Positions 22,325 to 29,095 of a stretch of DNA of 64,000 nt are shown piece after piece. Both the position numbers and the translations under genes were made by a program. Origin of the DNA: Actinotalea subterranea (GTDB lineage Bacteria > Actinomycetota > Actinomycetes > Actinomycetales > Cellulomonadaceae); contig NZ_VTTP01000006.1 in NCBI RefSeq assembly GCF_008364845.1, positions 1-64,000 on the forward strand. Reading direction: 5' to 3'. The notes under the pieces are model-generated. The model was not told the origin of the DNA, ran no database searches, and worked only from the letters and a program-made list of their open reading frames with translations. The stretch's first letter is position 1. Each line of letters starts with the position of its first letter.

Positions 22325-22415
22325 CGTCCCCGGCGGCCGCCGCAGGAAGGTTCTCGTCGTCGGGCCGTCACAGACGCGACGTGGCGTGCTCCTGAGATGT
22401 CGGCAGGGGCGATCC

Positions 22416-22445
22416 TTGTCGGACCGTGACGTGGCGCACTACGTT
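22416..22445 (+). promoter_or_regulatory. candidate promoter of the sigma/S8/CHAT island
   Basis: TTGTCG (22416-22421), 18-base spacer, TACGTT (22440-22445). Transcription would begin near 22452, which leaves ATG 22480 as the first usable start of the sigma gene and excludes the GTG at 22426. It resembles housekeeping promoters rather than an obvious ECF-type element. Confidence 0.5.
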
Positions 22446-22479
22446 GGGGCCCCCGACGGACCCGAGAGGGCTCAGGTCG

Positions 22480-23115
22480 ATGAACCGGACGACGGACAGC
22501 GCGACCGACGACGTCGGCGCGACGGCCTCGACGCTGGGCCGACGCGCGGGCGCGGCCCTCGCTGCGTACCGCGCCGGGGACCCGCAGCCGCTGGCCGGGC
22601 TCGTCCGCGAGGCCACCCCGCTCCTCTGGCACGTCGTGCGTGCGCAGGGCGTCGAGCGCGACGAGGCCGAGGACGTGGTGCAGGGCGTCTGGCTCGCGCT
22701 CGTGCGCAACGCGGCGACGATCCGGGAGCCCGACGCCGTGCTCGCCTGGCTCCTCGTCAGCGCACGCCGAGCCGCGTGGCAGGTGGTCAGGCGCCGCCGT
22801 GACGCCCAGCGCCGCACAGCCGCCCTCCCGGAGCCGGAAGGACCACGGGGCGGCGACCTGGCGTCCACGGACCCGCCGGTGGAGGCCCCGGTGCTCGTCG
22901 CCGAGCGCGACACGGCGCTGTGGCGCAGCTTCAGCGCCCTCCCGGAGCGCTGCCAGCAGATCCTGCGGTTCGTCGCGATGGCGGACCGGCCGGACTACCG
23001 GGCCATCGCGACCGTCACCGGGCTGCAGGTCACCGCGGTCGGCGTGACGCGCGGCCGGTGCCTGGCGAAGCTGCGGACGCTGCTGGACCGCGACGAGGGG
23101 TGGGTGAGCACATGA
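22480..23115 (+). CDS. ECF-like sigma-70 family RNA polymerase sigma factor
   Basis: 211 residues with only sigma regions 2 and 4. Region 2: LWHVVRAQGVERDEAEDVVQGVWLAL-like stretch (residues about 50-75) and PDAVLAWLLVSARRAAWQVV; region 4: LPERCQQILRF and YRAIATVTGLQVTAVGVTRGR as the -35-binding helix-turn-helix, residues about 150-200. It is expected to direct polymerase to a small regulon. No anti-sigma factor with a membrane segment is adjacent; the next, overlapping gene may play that part. Start ATG 22480 chosen over GTG 22426 on promoter position. It is head of an operon with two proteases, not linked to the ribosomal genes in function. Confidence 0.85.
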   Translation: MNRTTDSATDDVGATASTLGRRAGAALAAYRAGDPQPLAGLVREATPLLWHVVRAQGVERDEAEDVVQGVWLALVRNAATIREPDAVLAWLLVSARRAAWQVVRRRRDAQRRTAALPEPEGPRGGDLASTDPPVEAPVLVAERDTALWRSFSALPERCQQILRFVAMADRPDYRAIATVTGLQVTAVGVTRGRCLAKLRTLLDRDEGWVST

Positions 23116-23621
23116 GCGACGAGGGGCTGTCGGCCGACGTGCCGATGGACGCGGACGACCTGGCCGTCCTGGCCGAGCTGGCCCGGCTGTTCGAGCGGGT
23201 GGACCCACCCCCGCGGGGCCTCGTGGACCGGACGCTGTTCGCGCTCACGCTCGAGGCGCTGCAGACGCAGGTCATGGAGCTCCAGCACCTCGAGCAGCCT
23301 GCGCTCAGCGTGCGCGGGGACGGTGGCGCGCCCGGTCGGGAGTCGGTCGAGGCCCGCACGATCACCTTCACCGCGGACGCCGTGACCGTGATGATCACCC
23401 TGTCCGAGGGGCCGCACGGCGGGGTCCGGATCGACGGCTGGAGCGCCCCGGCCACCCGGTTCGTCGTCGACCTGTACCGGCCCGACGACCACCTGCAGAC
23501 GGAGTCCGACGACGACGGCGCATTCGTCATCCCGGACGTCCCGCCGGGGCTGGCGAGCCTCGTGCTGCGGCGCGCGGACGGCGCCGGCCCGGCCGTGAGC
23601 ACGCCGGTCATCGAGCTGTGA
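23112..23621 (+). CDS. unknown two-part protein coupled to the sigma factor
   Basis: 169 residues, ATGA overlap with the sigma gene, so translationally coupled. Residues 1-60 are acidic and probably helical (DDLAVLAELARLFERVDPPP, then LVDRTLFALTLEALQTQVMEL). Residues 75-169 look like a beta-sandwich similar to carboxypeptidase-regulatory-like domains (FVVDLYRPDDHLQTE, DDDGAFVIPDVPPGLASLVL). There is no signal peptide or membrane helix. The helical part could bind the sigma factor and the sandwich could sense or dock a ligand; both are guesses from position and layout. Confidence 0.75.
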   Translation: MSDEGLSADVPMDADDLAVLAELARLFERVDPPPRGLVDRTLFALTLEALQTQVMELQHLEQPALSVRGDGGAPGRESVEARTITFTADAVTVMITLSEGPHGGVRIDGWSAPATRFVVDLYRPDDHLQTESDDDGAFVIPDVPPGLASLVLRRADGAGPAVSTPVIEL

Positions 23622-23696
23622 GCAGACAGTGACGCGTCCGGGGGCGAGCCGGTCCGCCGGGCCGTCGTCGCGCACGCCTCGAGGCGAGGGGACGAG

Positions 23697-25445
23697 ATGA
23701 CCGAGGGTACGTACGGCCGGCCGGGCGACGGGCGGGGGAAGGACCCGGGCGACGGGGCGCAGGGCCCGCCGGACGGCGGGACCGACCTGACGTGGCGCAT
23801 CCGGGTCCTGGACCCGCGGACCGCGGTGCGACGCGGGGACGCGCCGCCGCCGGCCCCGACCACGTACGTCGCCGACCGCGTCCTCCTCGCGGGCGGGGAG
23901 GGTGCCAAGGCGGAGCTCGCTGCCGAGCTCGGGCGTGCCGCTGCGGAGCGCGGGTGGATGGTGACCGTCGAGCCGGGCGTGGACCAGGATGCGGCGCTGC
24001 TGCGCCGCGCCGACCTCCGTCCGGAGCTGCTCGCCGGCGTGGTGCCGGCGTTCTCGGCAGTGCGCCTGGCGCCCGCGGACGCCGCGGGTCCTCCGCCCGA
24101 CGCCTGGGAGCTCGTCGAGGCCGTCGGCGGGCGTGCCGCGGCGACGGGTGCGACCGTCGCGCTCGACCACGTGCTGGTCGCGTCGATCGGGCCGTCGATC
24201 GGTGGGTCGCCGTACACGCAGCCGCACCCCTACACGCAGCCCCACCCGTACACCCAGCCCCACCCGTACACCCAGCCGCACCCGTACACGCAACCGCACC
24301 CCTCGGCCGCGCTCGCCGAGTACGGCTCCGCGGGCCGCGGCGGCCGCAGCCCCGTGACCTGGGTGGGCCCGCGGCCGGCCCGACGCCACGCGTCGGGCAA
24401 GAGCGCCTTCGTCACGGCCGACGGCATGGCCCGGCCGGTCGTGGCCGTCCTGGACACCGGCACCGGCGAGCACCCGTGGTTCGACGGGGACGTCGTCGTG
24501 CGTGACCCGGAGGTCCTCGGCGTCCCCGTCGGCCCCTACCCGCGGCCCGCCGTCGCGCTGCACGACCCCGAGGTCGGCGGCATGGCCGTCGACCCGCTGA
24601 CCGGGGGCCTCGACCCGGCCGCCGGGCACGGCACGTTCATCGCGGGCCTGGTCCACCAGCGCTGCCCGGACGCCGTCGTCCTCTCGTGCCGGCTCTACGG
24701 GGGCGAGGGCATCGTCTCCGAGTGGGACCTGCTGCGTGCGCTCCGACGCCTCCTCCTCTTCCACGTCCTGGGCCTGCACGGACGCGCCGGCCACCACCCC
24801 GTCGACGTGGTCAACCTGTCCCTCGGCTACTACCACGAGCGTCCCGGCGACGCGGTGTTCGACGGCCCCTTCGGCGCATGCCTCGCGGCGCTGCGTCGGC
24901 ACGGGGTGGCGGTCGTCGTCTCCGCGGGGAACGACGCCGACCCGCGCCCGTCGTACCCGGCTGCGTTCGCCCCGCGGCTGGACCCCGCGACGGCCCCGCC
25001 GACCCCGCTCGACCCCGCGTCCCTGACGTGGGCCGAGCCCTGCGTCGTGAGCGTGGGCGCCCTCAACCCGGACGGCACGACGGCGCTGTTCAGCAACGAC
25101 GGCGCGTGGGTCACGTGCCGACGGCCGGGCGCGGCCGTGGTGAGCACGCTGCCCGTGACGCTCGCCGGGTCGCTCACGGCGTCACGCAGGCTGCGGGGCC
25201 GGGTGCCGGACGAGCGCCGGGCCACCATCGACCCGGACGGGTTCGCGGGCGGCTTCGGGGTGTGGAGCGGGACGTCGTTCGCGTCCCCCGTGCTCGCGGG
25301 TGATTTGGCCGCCGCGGTCCTGGCGGCCCGGGAGGCGGGGAGCACCGTGGCGGCTGGCACGACCTGGGACGACGCCCTCGCCGCGCGGTGCGTGCACACC
25401 TGGGAGGCGATCACCGCGACGACGGGGCTCGCGCCGCACCCGTGA
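23697..25445 (+). CDS. cytoplasmic S8 (subtilisin-like) serine peptidase
   Basis: 582 residues. A 240-residue N-terminal region without recognised domain, including five YTQPHP repeats (173-202), precedes a complete subtilase domain: D253 in AVLDTGTGEHPW, H311 in GHGTFIAGLVH, oxyanion N412 in VVSAGNDAD and S527 in WSGTSFASP. All four catalytic positions are intact. No signal peptide is present, unlike most subtilases, so it probably acts inside the cell. ATG 23697 follows GAGGGG. Belongs to the sigma/CHAT operon and may be processed by, or process, the CHAT protein (inference). Confidence 0.9.
   Translation: MTEGTYGRPGDGRGKDPGDGAQGPPDGGTDLTWRIRVLDPRTAVRRGDAPPPAPTTYVADRVLLAGGEGAKAELAAELGRAAAERGWMVTVEPGVDQDAALLRRADLRPELLAGVVPAFSAVRLAPADAAGPPPDAWELVEAVGGRAAATGATVALDHVLVASIGPSIGGSPYTQPHPYTQPHPYTQPHPYTQPHPYTQPHPSAALAEYGSAGRGGRSPVTWVGPRPARRHASGKSAFVTADGMARPVVAVLDTGTGEHPWFDGDVVVRDPEVLGVPVGPYPRPAVALHDPEVGGMAVDPLTGGLDPAAGHGTFIAGLVHQRCPDAVVLSCRLYGGEGIVSEWDLLRALRRLLLFHVLGLHGRAGHHPVDVVNLSLGYYHERPGDAVFDGPFGACLAALRRHGVAVVVSAGNDADPRPSYPAAFAPRLDPATAPPTPLDPASLTWAEPCVVSVGALNPDGTTALFSNDGAWVTCRRPGAAVVSTLPVTLAGSLTASRRLRGRVPDERRATIDPDGFAGGFGVWSGTSFASPVLAGDLAAAVLAAREAGSTVAAGTTWDDALAARCVHTWEAITATTGLAPHP
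24213..24302 (+). repeat. five 18-base repeats coding YTQPHP
   Basis: Five head-to-tail in-frame copies with silent differences among them (for example ACG or ACC for Thr, CAG or CAA for Gln). They form a 30-residue Pro/His/Tyr-rich hinge between the N-terminal region and the catalytic domain, possibly a flexible linker or a cleavage or metal-binding segment. Confidence 0.9.
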
Positions 25446-25482
25446 CGACGGGCGTCGGGTCCGTGGCGCCCCGGCCGTCGGC

Positions 25483-28242
25483 GTGGCCGAGGTGACCACG
25501 GGGCGCACCGGGCGGTCCGGACGCCCCGTGCGGCCGGCGCGCGTCCCGGCCGGCGTGCCCGCGCGTGACCTGCGCAGGGCACGCGGCGCGCTCGAGGCCG
25601 GGCTCCTGCAGAACGCGGCCGGGCACCCGGTGCGCGCGTCGCAGCGCTTCCGGTCGGCGCTGCGCCTCCTCGGTCAGGTGGCGGACGACGGGCCGGGCCG
25701 GGCAGGTGACGGGCCGACGCCCGGTGGGGCTCGCGGGGTGCCGGGCGCTGACCCGGACACGGCGTACGTGCGGGCGCGGGCCCTGCTCGGTCTGGTGATG
25801 AGCGACTTCGAGCTGCGGGCCGACGTGGCCGCGAGCGCGACCGCGCTCGACGAGGCGGAGCGCTGGGCCCGGGTGGCCGGGGCGAGCGCCGTCGAGGTCG
25901 CCGTCCTGGGCCAGCGGGGGCTCCTGGCGATGCGCGCCGGGAACCCGGCGGCGGCTCTGCGGGCGCTCGACCGTGCGGTCGCGCGGATCGGTCGGGCCGA
26001 GCCTGTCGACGCGTGCGTGCTCCTGCTCAACCGGGGCTCCCTGCACCTCGACGCGGGCCGCCTCGCCCAGGCCCGTGCAGATCTCGAGGAGTGCGCTGCC
26101 CGCGCCGGCGCAGCGGGGGACGTGATGCTGCTCTTCAAGGCCCGTCACAACCTCGGCTACCTCGCGTTCCTCGAGGGCGACCTGCCGGCCGCGCTGGCCG
26201 CGATGGCGGAGGCGGCGCAGATCGAGCACGGCGGGTCGCCGGCCGTCGCGCTCCTCGACCGTGCCCAGGTGCTGCTCGAGGCGGGGCTCACCACGGACGC
26301 CGACCGGAGCCTGGGGCGGGCGGCGGAGCTGTTCGCCGGCCAGGGGCTGTCCCACGACCTGGCGGAGGTCGAGCTGGCCCGCGCGCACTGCGCGCTCCTC
26401 GCCCGTCGACCCGAGGCTGCGCTGCGCTGGGCGCGCTCCGCCCGGCGGCGGTTCGTCCGGCGCGGCAACAAGCCCTGGTCGGCCCGCGCGGAGCTCGCGG
26501 TGTGCCGGGCCCGTGTCGCCGTCCTGCTCATGACCGAGCCGCGGCCCGTCGCGTCGCTCGTCCGGGTCGGCGAGCGCGCGGCTGCCCTCGGTGCGCGCGC
26601 CGGCGGGGGAGCGCCGCCCGGCGGGGTCGCCCGCGCAGCCTCGGTCACGGCGGCCGAGGCCTTCGTCGCGGCGGGGCGCGTCGACCGCGCACGTGCCGCG
26701 CTCGACGCCGCCGGTCGGCTGGGCCGCCACGACCCGCTCTCGCTGACGGTCCAGGCCCGGGTCGTCCGCGCCCAGCTGGCGTTCGCCGCGGGGCAGGACG
26801 CGCTCGCCCGCCGGCATGTGCGCGCGGGGCAGGCGGCGCTCGCCCTGCACCGTCGTCAGCTCGGGTCCGTCGAGGCCGTCGTGGCGGCTGCCGTGCACGG
26901 CGACCGCCTCACGGAGGTCGACGTGGGCGCCGCCCTGCGTCGCGGGGACGCCGCGGCAGTGCTCGACGCGGTCGAGCGTGGTCGTGCGACCTTCGCCGGG
27001 CCCGCGCGCGTGCGGCCGCCCGGGGACCCGGTGCTCGCCGAGCTCCTCGCGGACCTTCGCCGCTGCCTCGAGCGTGAGCGCGCGCTCCCGCTGGACGGCG
27101 GGCCGGCGGTGCGTGCGGAGCGTGAGGCGTCGCGACGGGAGGCGGACCGCCTGCGGACGCTCGCCCGCGAGCAGGCCTGGCGCCTCGGCGAGGGGACGAC
27201 GGCGCCGACGGCCGTGCGCGCCCGCGACCTCCGCGGAGCGTTCGAGCGGGCCGGACGCTCCGCGGGCCCGACAGTGGTGGACTACCTCGTCGACCGGGGC
27301 GTCGTGCACGCGGTGGTGGTCGACCCGGCCGGTGCGCGCCTCCTGCACCTCGCGGACGTGACCGAGACCGACGAGGTGGCGCGGCGGCTGGCCGCGGACC
27401 TGCGGGTCCTGGCGAACCCGCTCCTGCCCGCCCCGCTGCGTGAGGTCGCCGAGCGTTCGTTGGCCCGCGGGCTCGAGCGGCTCGACGCCCTCCTCGTGCG
27501 GCCCGTGGGGTGCACGGGACCCCTGCACGTCGTGGCGGGAGGGTGGATGGTGACCCTGCCGTGGGGTCTCGTGCCGTCCCGGGTCGGTCGCCCGACGAGT
27601 GTCGGCGAACGGCTCGAGCTGTCGGCCGGTCCGCCCATGGCGGCCCGCGACGTCGTCGCGTTCGCCGGCCCCGACCTCCCGCACGCCGAGGCCGAGGCCC
27701 GGGCCGTCGTCGAGGCGTGGTCCGGCGGCACGCTCCTCTCCGGTGAGGACGCCCGGTGCTCGGCTGCCGCGACCGCGCTGCGCACCGCGCGCGTCGTGCA
27801 CCTCGCGGCGCACGGTCGGCACGAGACGGACAACCCGCTGTTCTCGTGGGTGCGTCTGGCGGACGGCCCTCTGTTCGCGCACGAGCTCGACGGGCGGCCG
27901 CTGCCCGCGACCGCCGTCGTGCTGTCCGCGTGCGAGGTGGGGCGTGCGTCGGCCCGGCCGGGGGAGCAGGTGCTGGGCCTCGCGAGCGTCCTGCTGCGAC
28001 TCGGTGCGTCGTGCGTCGTCGCGGCCCTGGCCCCGCTGCGGGACGACCTGGCGGCCCGCGTCATGCCGGCGCTGCACGAGCGGCTCGCGGCAGGTGCGGG
28101 GCCTGCCGCAGCGCTCGCGGCCGCGGCCTCAGGCGTCGACGAGGTGGTCCCGGTCGCGTGCTTCGCGCCGTGGGCGCCCCTGGGCGCGGTCGGGCACGTA
28201 GGGCACCTCGGGGACACCGGGCTCGCCCGCCCAGGCGGCTGA
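25483..28242 (+). CDS. TPR-like CHAT domain protease (caspase fold)
   Basis: 919 residues. The first two thirds (about 25-600) are Ala/Arg/Leu-rich helical repeats of TPR type (ALRALDRAVARIG, LAQARADLEECAARAG, LLFKARHNLGYLAFLEGDLP). The C-terminal third is a CHAT domain with catalytic H777 in VHLAAHGRHE and C817 in VLSACEVGRA, followed by GEQVLGLASVLLRLGASCVV. CHAT enzymes are cysteine proteases of the caspase clan; in known bacterial systems (Craspase TPR-CHAT, gasdermin-linked proteases) the TPR part senses an activator. No signal peptide. Start uncertain: GTG 25483 or 25492; the frame is open further upstream into the S8 gene. The 3' end overlaps a gene on the other strand by 114 bases. 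Confidence 0.88.
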   Translation: MAEVTTGRTGRSGRPVRPARVPAGVPARDLRRARGALEAGLLQNAAGHPVRASQRFRSALRLLGQVADDGPGRAGDGPTPGGARGVPGADPDTAYVRARALLGLVMSDFELRADVAASATALDEAERWARVAGASAVEVAVLGQRGLLAMRAGNPAAALRALDRAVARIGRAEPVDACVLLLNRGSLHLDAGRLAQARADLEECAARAGAAGDVMLLFKARHNLGYLAFLEGDLPAALAAMAEAAQIEHGGSPAVALLDRAQVLLEAGLTTDADRSLGRAAELFAGQGLSHDLAEVELARAHCALLARRPEAALRWARSARRRFVRRGNKPWSARAELAVCRARVAVLLMTEPRPVASLVRVGERAAALGARAGGGAPPGGVARAASVTAAEAFVAAGRVDRARAALDAAGRLGRHDPLSLTVQARVVRAQLAFAAGQDALARRHVRAGQAALALHRRQLGSVEAVVAAAVHGDRLTEVDVGAALRRGDAAAVLDAVERGRATFAGPARVRPPGDPVLAELLADLRRCLERERALPLDGGPAVRAEREASRREADRLRTLAREQAWRLGEGTTAPTAVRARDLRGAFERAGRSAGPTVVDYLVDRGVVHAVVVDPAGARLLHLADVTETDEVARRLAADLRVLANPLLPAPLREVAERSLARGLERLDALLVRPVGCTGPLHVVAGGWMVTLPWGLVPSRVGRPTSVGERLELSAGPPMAARDVVAFAGPDLPHAEAEARAVVEAWSGGTLLSGEDARCSAAATALRTARVVHLAAHGRHETDNPLFSWVRLADGPLFAHELDGRPLPATAVVLSACEVGRASARPGEQVLGLASVLLRLGASCVVAALAPLRDDLAARVMPALHERLAAGAGPAAALAAAASGVDEVVPVACFAPWAPLGAVGHVGHLGDTGLARPGG

Positions 28243-29013
28243 CGCGTCGGGCAGGGCGTCCGGGCGGCCGAGGAGGCCCGCCCAGGCGCCGGCGGCGAGC
28301 ACCGCGGCGGGTGCGGAGCCCGTGAGGCGTACGGGGCCGTCGGGGCCCGCGGCCGGCACGTCGCGGCCCGGTGCGGCCAGGTGCGCGAGGTGGCTGCTGC
28401 TCGGCAGCATCGCGGCGCGGTCGTGCCCCGTCACAGCAGCGACGCCGCTCACCGAGGCGGGGAACGTCAGCGTGTGGCTCCCGGCGGTCTCGGCGGCGAC
28501 GAACACGCGCGTCCCGCCCTCGGCGGCGGCGCGCACGGTCACGGCGACGCGGCGGGCCGGCCGGACCCGGACGAACGGGAGCACGAGGACCTGGGCGCCC
28601 GCGTCGAGCGACCACCGGACCGCGCTCACGATGCGCTGGTCCGCGCACGCGCCGTCGACGTCGTGCACCGGTGCGACGAGGAGCTGCGCCTCGGGGACCA
28701 GGCCGCGCACGTGCGCGGCGCCCTGACCGACGAGGAGCGACGCGAGCGCGGTTCCGCCGGCCGTGTGCTCGTGCGAGGCGCGCCCGCGACCCGCGGGGCG
28801 GGTCGTCACCCGGGCGCCGCGCAGGTCGGGGTGGCGCAGGTCGGGATACCCGGCGAGCAGGGCGATGCGGGTGCCGGCCCCCGAGCGGTCACGGCCGAGG
28901 ACGGAGTACTCGAGCAGGGGGACCGGGCCCGGCGGCCGACGACGGTCCGCGAGCCAGCGCACGGCCAGCCAGCGGGAGAGGTCCACCACTGCCACGCCCA
29001 CGGGGTCGGACAT
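28129..29013 (-). CDS. subtilisin-fold pseudoprotease (S8-like, catalytic residues lost)
   Basis: 294 residues that follow the S8 fold but lack every catalytic residue. Asp is A54 (IALLAGYPDLRHPDL for the usual DTG...HPDL), His is G86 (AGGTALASLLVG for GHGT), oxyanion Asn is T176 (VAAETAG for AAGN), Ser is A234 (TGSAPAAVLAAGAWA for GTSMAxP). The fold markers HLAAPG and the HPDL turn remain. The frame is intact, so it is not a recent pseudogene. ATG 29013 has GAGGAGG five bases upstream; an earlier start at 29034 is possible. Convergent with the CHAT gene. It may be a binding partner, inhibitor or decoy for the proteases next to it. Confidence 0.82.
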   Translation of the reverse strand: MSDPVGVAVVDLSRWLAVRWLADRRRPPGPVPLLEYSVLGRDRSGAGTRIALLAGYPDLRHPDLRGARVTTRPAGRGRASHEHTAGGTALASLLVGQGAAHVRGLVPEAQLLVAPVHDVDGACADQRIVSAVRWSLDAGAQVLVLPFVRVRPARRVAVTVRAAAEGGTRVFVAAETAGSHTLTFPASVSGVAAVTGHDRAAMLPSSSHLAHLAAPGRDVPAAGPDGPVRLTGSAPAAVLAAGAWAGLLGRPDALPDASAAWAGEPGVPEVPYVPDRAQGRPRREARDRDHLVDA

Positions 29014-29095
29014 CACGCCTCCTCGTCCGGGCACGGGGTGCGCCCTCGTCCCTCAGGAGCGAGCGGTGCGCGCCGTGTGACGGCGGGGTCGTGAT

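What the first reader, a model, noticed from the sequence alone, without database searches (positions are those of the whole stretch)
22416..29013. Sigma factor / subtilase / CHAT protease / pseudosubtilase island inside the ribosomal supercluster
Between the L1 terminator and the L10 leader lie five genes unrelated to ribosomes: an ECF-like sigma factor, a coupled small unknown protein, an intact S8 protease, a TPR-like CHAT protease and a convergent S8-like protein. The first four run co-directionally from one candidate promoter. All lack export signals. A caspase-fold protease plus a serine protease plus a dedicated sigma factor suggests an intracellular proteolytic signalling or defence-like relay, with the TPR part as sensor. 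CHAT proteases with TPR sensors are known from Craspase and gasdermin systems; this combination, to my knowledge, has no assigned function.
Basis: partly seen in the sequence, partly recalled or inferred. Interest (0 to 1): 0.85.

Follow-up and report, generated by a model that had tools for sequence, protein, structure and literature searches.

The report
Self-switched two-protease module with coded repeats
Between two ribosomal protein genes lies a small self-regulating switch of five genes (a sigma factor, its likely inhibitor, two active proteases and a probably dead one), and one protease carries a short peptide repeated five times whose sequence changes from genus to genus, partly in step with the other protease that may read it.

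Summary
The five genes are real and the combination recurs: 82 of 104 neighbourhoods examined hold the sigma factor, small protein, TPR-CHAT protease and an S8 or trypsin-like protease. A review already notes subtilase, carboxypeptidase and CHAT proteins beside ECF54 sigma factors (PMC8999054, passages), so the combination is not new.

Not found in my literature searches: (1) a promoter motif, YGT(AT/CA)CW-N16-CTCY. The 64-kb window holds exactly two sites, before sigma and before the S8-like gene, so all five genes look like one regulon. (2) The S8 protease carries a tandem hexapeptide array (PYTQPH x5 here) between pro-domain and catalytic domain. In 44 of 49 S8 arrays all units are identical in amino acids although their DNA differs, yet the unit changes between genera. 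(3) Array divergence tracks the CHAT protein's TPR region best overall, the S8 catalytic domain second. (4) In relatives, trypsin-like proteases replace or join S8, some beside lanthipeptide enzymes.

Best reading: a sigma/anti-sigma switch like that of Craspase, in which the two proteases recognise each other through the array. Binding, cleavage order and trigger are inferred. A defence role is neither shown nor excluded.

The parts
22366..22392 (+). candidate sigma-dependent promoter, CGTCACA-N16-CTCC, before the sigma-small-S8-CHAT genes
   Evidence: aligned with equivalent sites in L002, L006 and L041; one of only two exact motif sites in the 64-kb window; 7 such sites in the whole genome, 1 in the reversed-pattern control
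22480..23115 (+). ECF-type sigma factor, 211 aa
   Evidence: TIGR02937 46.2 bits over cut-off 42.9; Sigma70_r2 34.1 bits
23112..23621 (+). small sigma-coupled protein, 169 aa, putative soluble anti-sigma: two N-terminal helices (low confidence) and a C-terminal beta domain
   Evidence: follows sigma on the same strand in 87 of 95 small genes, overlapping it in 75; AlphaFold2 mean pLDDT 69.3
23697..25445 (+). intracellular S8 serine protease, 582 aa, with an N-terminal domain that resembles a subtilase pro-domain
   Evidence: Peptidase_S8 60.4 bits; catalytic residues kept in 80 of 81 rows; residues 55-162 predicted as a beta-alpha domain, the rest of the model poor
24210..24299 (+). tandem hexapeptide array PYTQPH x5 (residues 172-201 of the S8 protein)
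   Evidence: TRF; five different DNA units, one amino-acid unit; P[YF]T[QE]P occurs elsewhere in this genome only as 3 single hits, with 2 control hits
25483..28242 (+). TPR-CHAT caspase-like protease, 919 aa; His777 codon 27811-27813, Cys817 codon 27931-27933
   Evidence: CHAT 93.5 bits; His and Cys in 86 of 88 rows, 2 gaps
28129..29013 (-). S8-like protein without a catalytic triad (probable pseudo-subtilase), convergent, overlapping the CHAT 3' end by 114 nt
   Evidence: catalytic columns; relatives in L002, L006, L007
29056..29082 (-). candidate promoter of the same type, CGTCACA-N16-CTCC, before the S8-like gene
   Evidence: second of two sites in the window; equivalent sites before the S8-like gene in L002, L006 and L007

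Best explanation
A self-amplifying cytoplasmic protease switch. The sigma factor transcribes its own operon (sigma, small protein, S8, CHAT) and the S8-like gene. The translationally coupled small protein holds the sigma factor in check (anti-sigma). The TPR half of the CHAT protein recognises the short peptide repeated in tandem on the S8 protease. A signal received by this pair sets off proteolysis (most simply: CHAT docks on and cuts the S8 pro-linker, active S8 removes the anti-sigma) and frees sigma, which makes more of the module. The S8-like protein would be a decoy or brake made by the same sigma. Shown by sequence: gene content, recurrence, catalytic residues, shared promoter motif, array conservation and its covariation. 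Inferred: anti-sigma role, array-TPR binding, order of cuts, role of the S8-like protein. Unknown: the trigger.
For: Co-occurrence in 82 of 104 loci. Small protein directly behind sigma in 87 of 95, overlapping in 75; 14 further loci hold sigma and small without CHAT or protease in the stretch read, some cut by contig ends. Both proteases keep their catalytic residues. Promoter motif: GTATC[AT] in 46 of 90 upstream regions against a shuffle mean of 1.7 and maximum of 5; 82 full sites in 1.91 Mb of loci, reversed control 0; two sites in the window, before sigma and before the S8-like gene. Array: in 49 of 81 S8 proteins, 0 of 88 CHAT, 0 of 95 small, 31 of 1544 genes outside the S8 and trypsin groups; amino-acid identical in 44 of 49, DNA differing in 49 of 49. 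Two genomes with two S8-CHAT sets each keep one unit per set (PFTSGG; HPMYDG or HPLYDG). Array distance against component distance, sigma distance partialled out, 42 loci: TPR half 2 0.62, S8 catalytic 0.51, CHAT_mid 0.46, TPR half 1 0.40, CHAT_core 0.37, small 0.34, S8 pro-domain 0.21; TPR half 2 top in 290 of 300 subsamples; within-family permutation p 0.002, difference from S8 catalytic p 0.018. A trypsin-like protease in the S8-less relative L005 carries TQPF repeats that share 5 residues with the S8 array of L007 and 4 with L004, L038 and L039.
Against: No binding or cleavage data. Among within-family pairs alone the S8 catalytic domain covaries most (0.60), then TPR half 1 (0.56), TPR half 2 only 0.44. 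32 of 81 S8 genes had no detectable array, including 6 of 6 in f21 and 6 of 6 in f34. In the AT form the motif is close to background genome-wide (159 hits against 118 control hits over 40 genomes, my sum), and the window's CA form lies two bases from the common form. Anti-sigma function rests on position and analogy; no anti-sigma family match. L006's S8-like protein may be active.
Confidence: 0.5

Rival explanations
1. The array serves only the S8 protease itself: a self-inhibiting or self-cut linker between pro-domain and catalytic domain, matched to its own active-site cleft. CHAT does not read it.
For: The array lies after the domain that resembles a subtilase pro-domain; the S8 catalytic domain is the second-best covariate overall and the best among within-family pairs; many units hold Pro or Gly next to an aromatic or Leu residue, as in classic subtilisin substrates (recalled).
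Against: Trypsin-like proteases with an unrelated active site carry arrays of similar sequence in the same family, at the C-terminal end; array divergence tracks the TPR region of another gene better overall.
Confidence: 0.25
2. The arrays are multi-core precursors of a modified peptide (RiPP) built into proteases that release their own product.
For: L056, L059, L069 and L105 carry APH, HopA1 and LanC-like genes directly behind a trypsin-like protease with repeated Thr-Arg...Cys segments; L071 has APH and LanC called and a HopA1 hit in the gap between them. In 10 of the 12 genomes with HopA1 (61 searched) it lies in the module stretch. PMC9415263 (passages) links HopA1-like proteins to dehydroamino acids in class V lanthipeptides. 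Several of these protease genes have the sigma motif in front.
Against: 49 of 61 searched genomes, this one included, lack HopA1, and this genome lacks LanC-like proteins; the S8 array units printed hold no Cys and many hold neither Ser nor Thr; the window product has no tailoring gene among its five.
Confidence: 0.1
3. The module is an anti-phage or self-killing system in which CHAT or S8 kills or arrests the infected cell.
For: CHAT proteases act in Craspase (PMC10028731, passages) and with bacterial gasdermins (recalled); fast change of the array and insulated paralogous sets could fit an arms race.
Against: PADLOC matches are weak (at most 13.7 bits); fixed chromosomal place in 21 loci; nearly absent from plasmid and phage records; no toxic effector recognised among the five.
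Confidence: 0.15
4. The array is a neutral spacer made by replication slippage.
For: Short perfect tandem repeats arise by slippage.
Against: Units differ in DNA but not in amino acids in 44 of 49 S8 arrays; the same place in many genera with a rebuilt unit.
Confidence: 0.04

Closest known systems
ECF54 sigma factors with their conserved neighbours (subtilase, CHAT, carboxypeptidase; review PMC8999054, passages only)
   Same: Actinobacterial ECF sigma factor beside subtilase and CHAT genes; the small protein's weak CarboxypepD_reg match fits the 'carboxypeptidase' of that description.
   Different: [quoted passage not shown] here the small protein is proposed as one. The array, the promoter motif, the trypsin replacement and the lanthipeptide link are not in the passages seen. 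I had no ECF54 model to test group membership.
Craspase / type III-E CASP (Cas7-11, Csx29 TPR-CHAT, Csx30, CASP-sigma; PMC10028731, passages only)
   Same: TPR-CHAT protease, a sigma-bound inhibitor and an ECF-type sigma factor; the sigma factor has binding motifs in its own locus.
   Different: No significant similarity beyond the CHAT core (Csx29 model 16.5 bits against cut-off 300; PDB Csx29 chains E 0.005-0.017); a second, array-bearing serine protease is present and the small protein is not an evident Csx30.
RRNPP peptide-receptor systems (Rap, PlcR, PrgX; recalled)
   Same: A TPR domain paired with a short linear peptide of 5-9 residues that diverges with its receptor (proposed here).
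   Different: The peptide sits in tandem in a protease, not in a small exported precursor; the TPR is fused to a protease. One PDB hit to a Rap protein is not significant (E 0.48).
Class V lanthipeptide synthetase genes (APH kinase, HopA1 lyase, LanC-like cyclase; PMC9415263 passages, otherwise recalled)
   Same: All three types beside the module in L056, L059, L069 and L105.
   Different: Absent from this genome (HopA1, LanC); the candidate substrate would be part of a protease.

Membership tests
ECF54-type locus | ECF sigma factor | tested here: met
   TIGR02937 over its cut-off
ECF54-type locus | subtilase and CHAT genes in the neighbourhood | tested here: met
ECF54-type locus | carboxypeptidase-type protein in the neighbourhood | tested here: inconclusive
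   CarboxypepD_reg 18.1 bits, below its cut-off 32.3
ECF54-type locus | assignment by the ECF54 model | not testable with these tools
   no ECF group models held; the classification paper is not held
Craspase (type III-E) | TPR-CHAT protease with His-Cys dyad | tested here: met
Craspase (type III-E) | protease is a Csx29 | tested here: not met
   16.5 bits against cut-off 300
Craspase (type III-E) | Cas7-11 and CRISPR array in the genome | not tested
   no search made
Craspase (type III-E) | inhibitor that binds the sigma factor and is cut by CHAT | not testable with these tools
   needs binding and cleavage assays; position only
IetAS-type S8 defence | S8 protein matches the IetS models | tested here: not met
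   best 13.7 bits over a short stretch (PADLOC); NCBIfam IteS_antiphage 12.1 bits against cut-off 900
Class V lanthipeptide locus | HopA1 lyase and LanC-like cyclase in the window's genome | tested here: not met
   HopA1 0 hits in G000, LANC_like 0 hits
RRNPP-type peptide sensing | TPR receptor binds a specific short peptide | tested here: inconclusive
   covariation only

The most novel reading that the evidence does not exclude
The array is an intracellular multi-copy peptide signal: the protease releases many copies of one hexapeptide from its own linker, and the TPR domain of the CHAT protease is the receptor for exactly that peptide, so every genus runs a private peptide code inside the cell that gates a caspase-like protease and, through it, a sigma factor. 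In some lineages the peptide part would also be lanthionine-modified.
Probability: 0.18. Interest if true: 0.93.

Novelty: new variant of a known kind. Interest (0 to 1): 0.74.

Why it matters
A sigma/CHAT/subtilase neighbourhood was on record without a mechanism. The promoter motif defines a closed regulon to test, the array names a recognition element, and the paralogous sets in one genome give a natural swap experiment. If the array is read by TPR-CHAT, this would be a bacterial protease cascade with an evolving peptide code, and it would show a Craspase-like sigma switch outside CRISPR.

Tried and rejected
Neutral linker: unlikely, because units are identical in amino acids but not in DNA. 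Array copies in partner proteins (as shared amyloid motifs would need): 0 of 88 CHAT and 0 of 95 small proteins carry an array, and P[YF]T[QE]P occurs in this genome outside S8 only as three single hits, with two control hits. Lanthionine chemistry as the general role of the array: rejected, since this genome lacks HopA1 and LanC-like proteins and 49 of 61 searched genomes lack HopA1. Plasmid- or phage-borne defence island: not supported. The S8 structure model is too poor to place the array (mean pLDDT 42.8, no Foldseek match at E 0.001 or below); the small protein's model gave no confident fold match either. The consensus fold of the candidate RNA was weak (-2.22 kcal/mol, covariation term 0.51), Rfam gave only two tRNAs, and a strict scan for clusters of three GGGG-loop hairpins found only one candidate site, L089 5405, among 7 clusters.

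Own errors found: alignment A4 took eight rows on the wrong strand and was replaced by A5. A repeat-rich gene end in L086 was clustered with the trypsins; it is not one and is left out of my trypsin counts.
Full report
What is there. The stretch 22366-29082 between the genes for L1 and L10 holds an ECF-type sigma factor, a small protein whose start overlaps the sigma stop by four bases, an S8 protease, a TPR-CHAT protease and, convergent, an S8-like protein without a catalytic triad. CHAT occurs once in this 4.03-Mb genome.

Recurrence. Six named relatives (Actinotalea, Oerskovia, Cellulomonas) hold the module in the same L1-L10 gap. The small protein was found in 65 of 297 genomes of the order (E up to 0.001, some matches weak) and 44 of 396 of the phylum (E up to 1e-5); the congener shown (G263) lacks it. 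I read 58 stretches from 58 of the 64 other order genomes and 39 stretches from 36 of 40 new phylum genomes; the ten left out were among the weakest matches. With the window and the six named loci this gives 104 loci; L005 and L040 seem to be the same contig (equal lengths). Of these, 82 hold sigma, small, CHAT and a protease: 71 with S8 only, 6 with trypsin-like only, 5 with both. The other 22 lack one or more parts, several at contig ends. In all 21 loci with both L1 and L10 in the stretch, the module lies there with them.

Prior work. PMC8999054 (passages) states that ECF54 sigma factors have proteins with carboxypeptidase, subtilase and CHAT domains in their context and proposes control by proteolysis without an anti-sigma factor. 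The library held no other relevant paper with that group name. The two classification papers I tried are not held, so more may be in print.

Promoters. Upstream of the modules GTATC[AT] occurs in 46 of 90 regions (shuffle mean 1.7, maximum 5; reverse strand 10), with a second box CTC[CT]T mostly 16 bases on (20 of 23 spacings). The full motif gave 82 sites in 1.91 Mb of these loci, none for the reversed pattern; they precede sigma (21), S8 (18) and trypsin-like genes (9, of which L005 and L040 are one contig); 22 had no called gene within 300 bases and 12 precede other genes. These loci were chosen for the module. Over 40 whole genomes the motif gave 159 hits against 118 for the reversed control (my sum), so most sites elsewhere are probably background; this genome had none of that AT form. 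In the window's lineage the first box reads GTCACA: aligned sites stand before sigma in L002, L006 and L041. Counting both forms, the 64-kb window has exactly two sites, at 22366 (+) before sigma and 29082 (-) before the S8-like gene; L002 and L006 show the same pair, L007 only the second. This genome holds seven GTCACA-form sites, control one; the genes behind the other five were not worked out.

The array. At residues 172-201 the S8 protein reads PYTQPH five times. It follows an N-terminal domain predicted as beta-alpha-beta with weak ferredoxin-like matches, which I read as a pro-domain because its last strand (ALDHVLVAS) stands where relatives such as L135 have the usual EPNY strand. At that place relatives have other units: PYTQGH, PYTQPF, PFTQPL, PLTDPH, PFTQSH, GYGDGV, GWGQGV, PYWDPV, NPYGRT, PFIETN, PFTSGG, NPAYQG and more. 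In 49 of 49 S8 arrays the DNA units differ; in 44 all amino-acid units are identical, the exceptions being L050, L051, L090, L105 and L106. In the first set the differences lie almost wholly at third positions. So the unit is held constant inside a protein and rebuilt between genera. Arrays were detected in 49 of 81 S8 genes, 0 of 88 CHAT, 0 of 95 small and 31 of 1544 genes outside the S8 and trypsin groups. S8 copies without one include 6 of 6 in family f21, 6 of 6 in f34, 8 of 17 in f13 and 5 of 15 in f1; some of these keep two spaced copies of a motif, such as TPYTIPH in L052.

Who reads it. In two genomes with two S8-CHAT sets (L106, L108) each set has its own unit, kept between the genomes (PFTSGG in one, HPMYDG or HPLYDG in the other). 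In L005 the S8 gene is missing and a trypsin-like protease carries TQPF repeats, which share five residues with the S8 array of L007 and four with those of L004, L038 and L039; against 39 S8 arrays of other families one shares four and none more. Of the 992 S8-S8 pairs from different families, 24 share four or more. Across 42 loci, array distance (sigma distance partialled out) tracks TPR half 2 of CHAT (residues 250-500) at 0.62, S8 catalytic domain 0.51, CHAT_mid 0.46, TPR half 1 0.40, CHAT_core 0.37, small protein 0.34, S8 pro-domain 0.21; TPR half 2 is first in 290 of 300 subsamples. With arrays permuted within families the p values are 0.002 for TPR half 2, 0.010 for S8 catalytic, 0.012 for TPR half 1, 0.042 for CHAT_core, and above 0.1 for the rest. 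Against this reading: among within-family pairs alone the S8 catalytic domain leads (0.60), then TPR half 1 (0.56), TPR half 2 0.44. These tests are not tree-aware. I take TPR-CHAT as the likelier reader because it is a separate gene, but the S8 active site remains a serious rival.

The small protein. It follows sigma directly in 87 of 95 cases, overlapping it in 75. Alone with sigma it is found in further loci. It has a helical N terminus and a beta domain, no confident fold match and no significant anti-sigma family match. I call it a putative anti-sigma by position and by analogy with Csx30 (PMC10028731, passages).

Mechanism. The most economical reading is given under best explanation. The anti-sigma role, array binding, order of cuts and trigger are inferred, not shown.

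Branches in relatives. In L056, L059, L069 and L105 a trypsin-like protease with Cys-rich Thr-Arg repeats is followed by APH, HopA1 and LanC-like genes. HopA1 occurs in 12 of 61 searched genomes, in 10 of them in the module stretch. This genome has neither HopA1 nor LanC-like proteins. In several relatives a motif site is followed by no clear gene but by G-rich hairpins: of 16 such sites that I picked (13 of the 22 without a called gene, plus three with a distant or doubtful call), 9 have two or more TGGGG in 153 bases against 0.9% of random stretches and 0 of 16 sites before genes. This is a lead only.

Noticed in passing
L075 9139+, L076 5484-, L077 5543-, L079 14471+, L080 5510-, L081 5472-, L082 18539+, L089 5457-, L122 10358+: Sigma-motif sites followed by no clear gene but by G-rich hairpins with repeated TGGGG: a possible sigma-dependent non-coding RNA beside the CHAT gene, not matched in Rfam; consensus fold weak.
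   Followed up: partly
L056, L059, L069, L105 (also L071, L052-L055, L118): APH, HopA1 and LanC-like genes (all three, or HopA1 with LanC-like) next to the module; the trypsin-like protease in front carries Cys-rich Thr-Arg repeats.
   Followed up: partly
L005 6871-8529 -, L042 11159-13006 +, L043 11261-13060 +, L048 11176-12996 +: Nal1-like trypsin-type proteases with long TQPF or FTEP arrays and a C-terminal FWxGYxAA-type segment in place of the S8 gene.
   Followed up: partly
L106, L108: Genomes with two S8-CHAT sets but one called sigma gene and three small genes, each set with its own array unit.
   Followed up: partly
L126 15213-17153 -, L128 2953-4776 +, L131 2881-4674 +: In family f21 a LuxR-type regulator with an AAA-like ATPase part (Pfam run on the L126 copy) has the sigma motif directly in front.
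   Followed up: no
phage record MT838002.1, 3-947: An unannotated 7.5-kb record labelled Bacteriophage sp. (human fecal samples) encodes a piece 42% identical to residues 206-531 of the S8 protein; it may be bacterial DNA.
   Followed up: no
plasmid record NZ_LT559118.1: The only plasmid-collection match to the small protein is an 11.85-Mb Nonomuraea record, probably a chromosome filed as a plasmid.
   Followed up: no
L003 10001-12509: The CHAT gene of Oerskovia turbata is read in two overlapping frames, a frameshift or a sequencing error.
   Followed up: no
L106, L108, L126-L131: Genes of one cluster (the L106 copy is an MscS-type mechanosensitive channel by Pfam) lie near the module in 8 loci of two families.
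   Followed up: no
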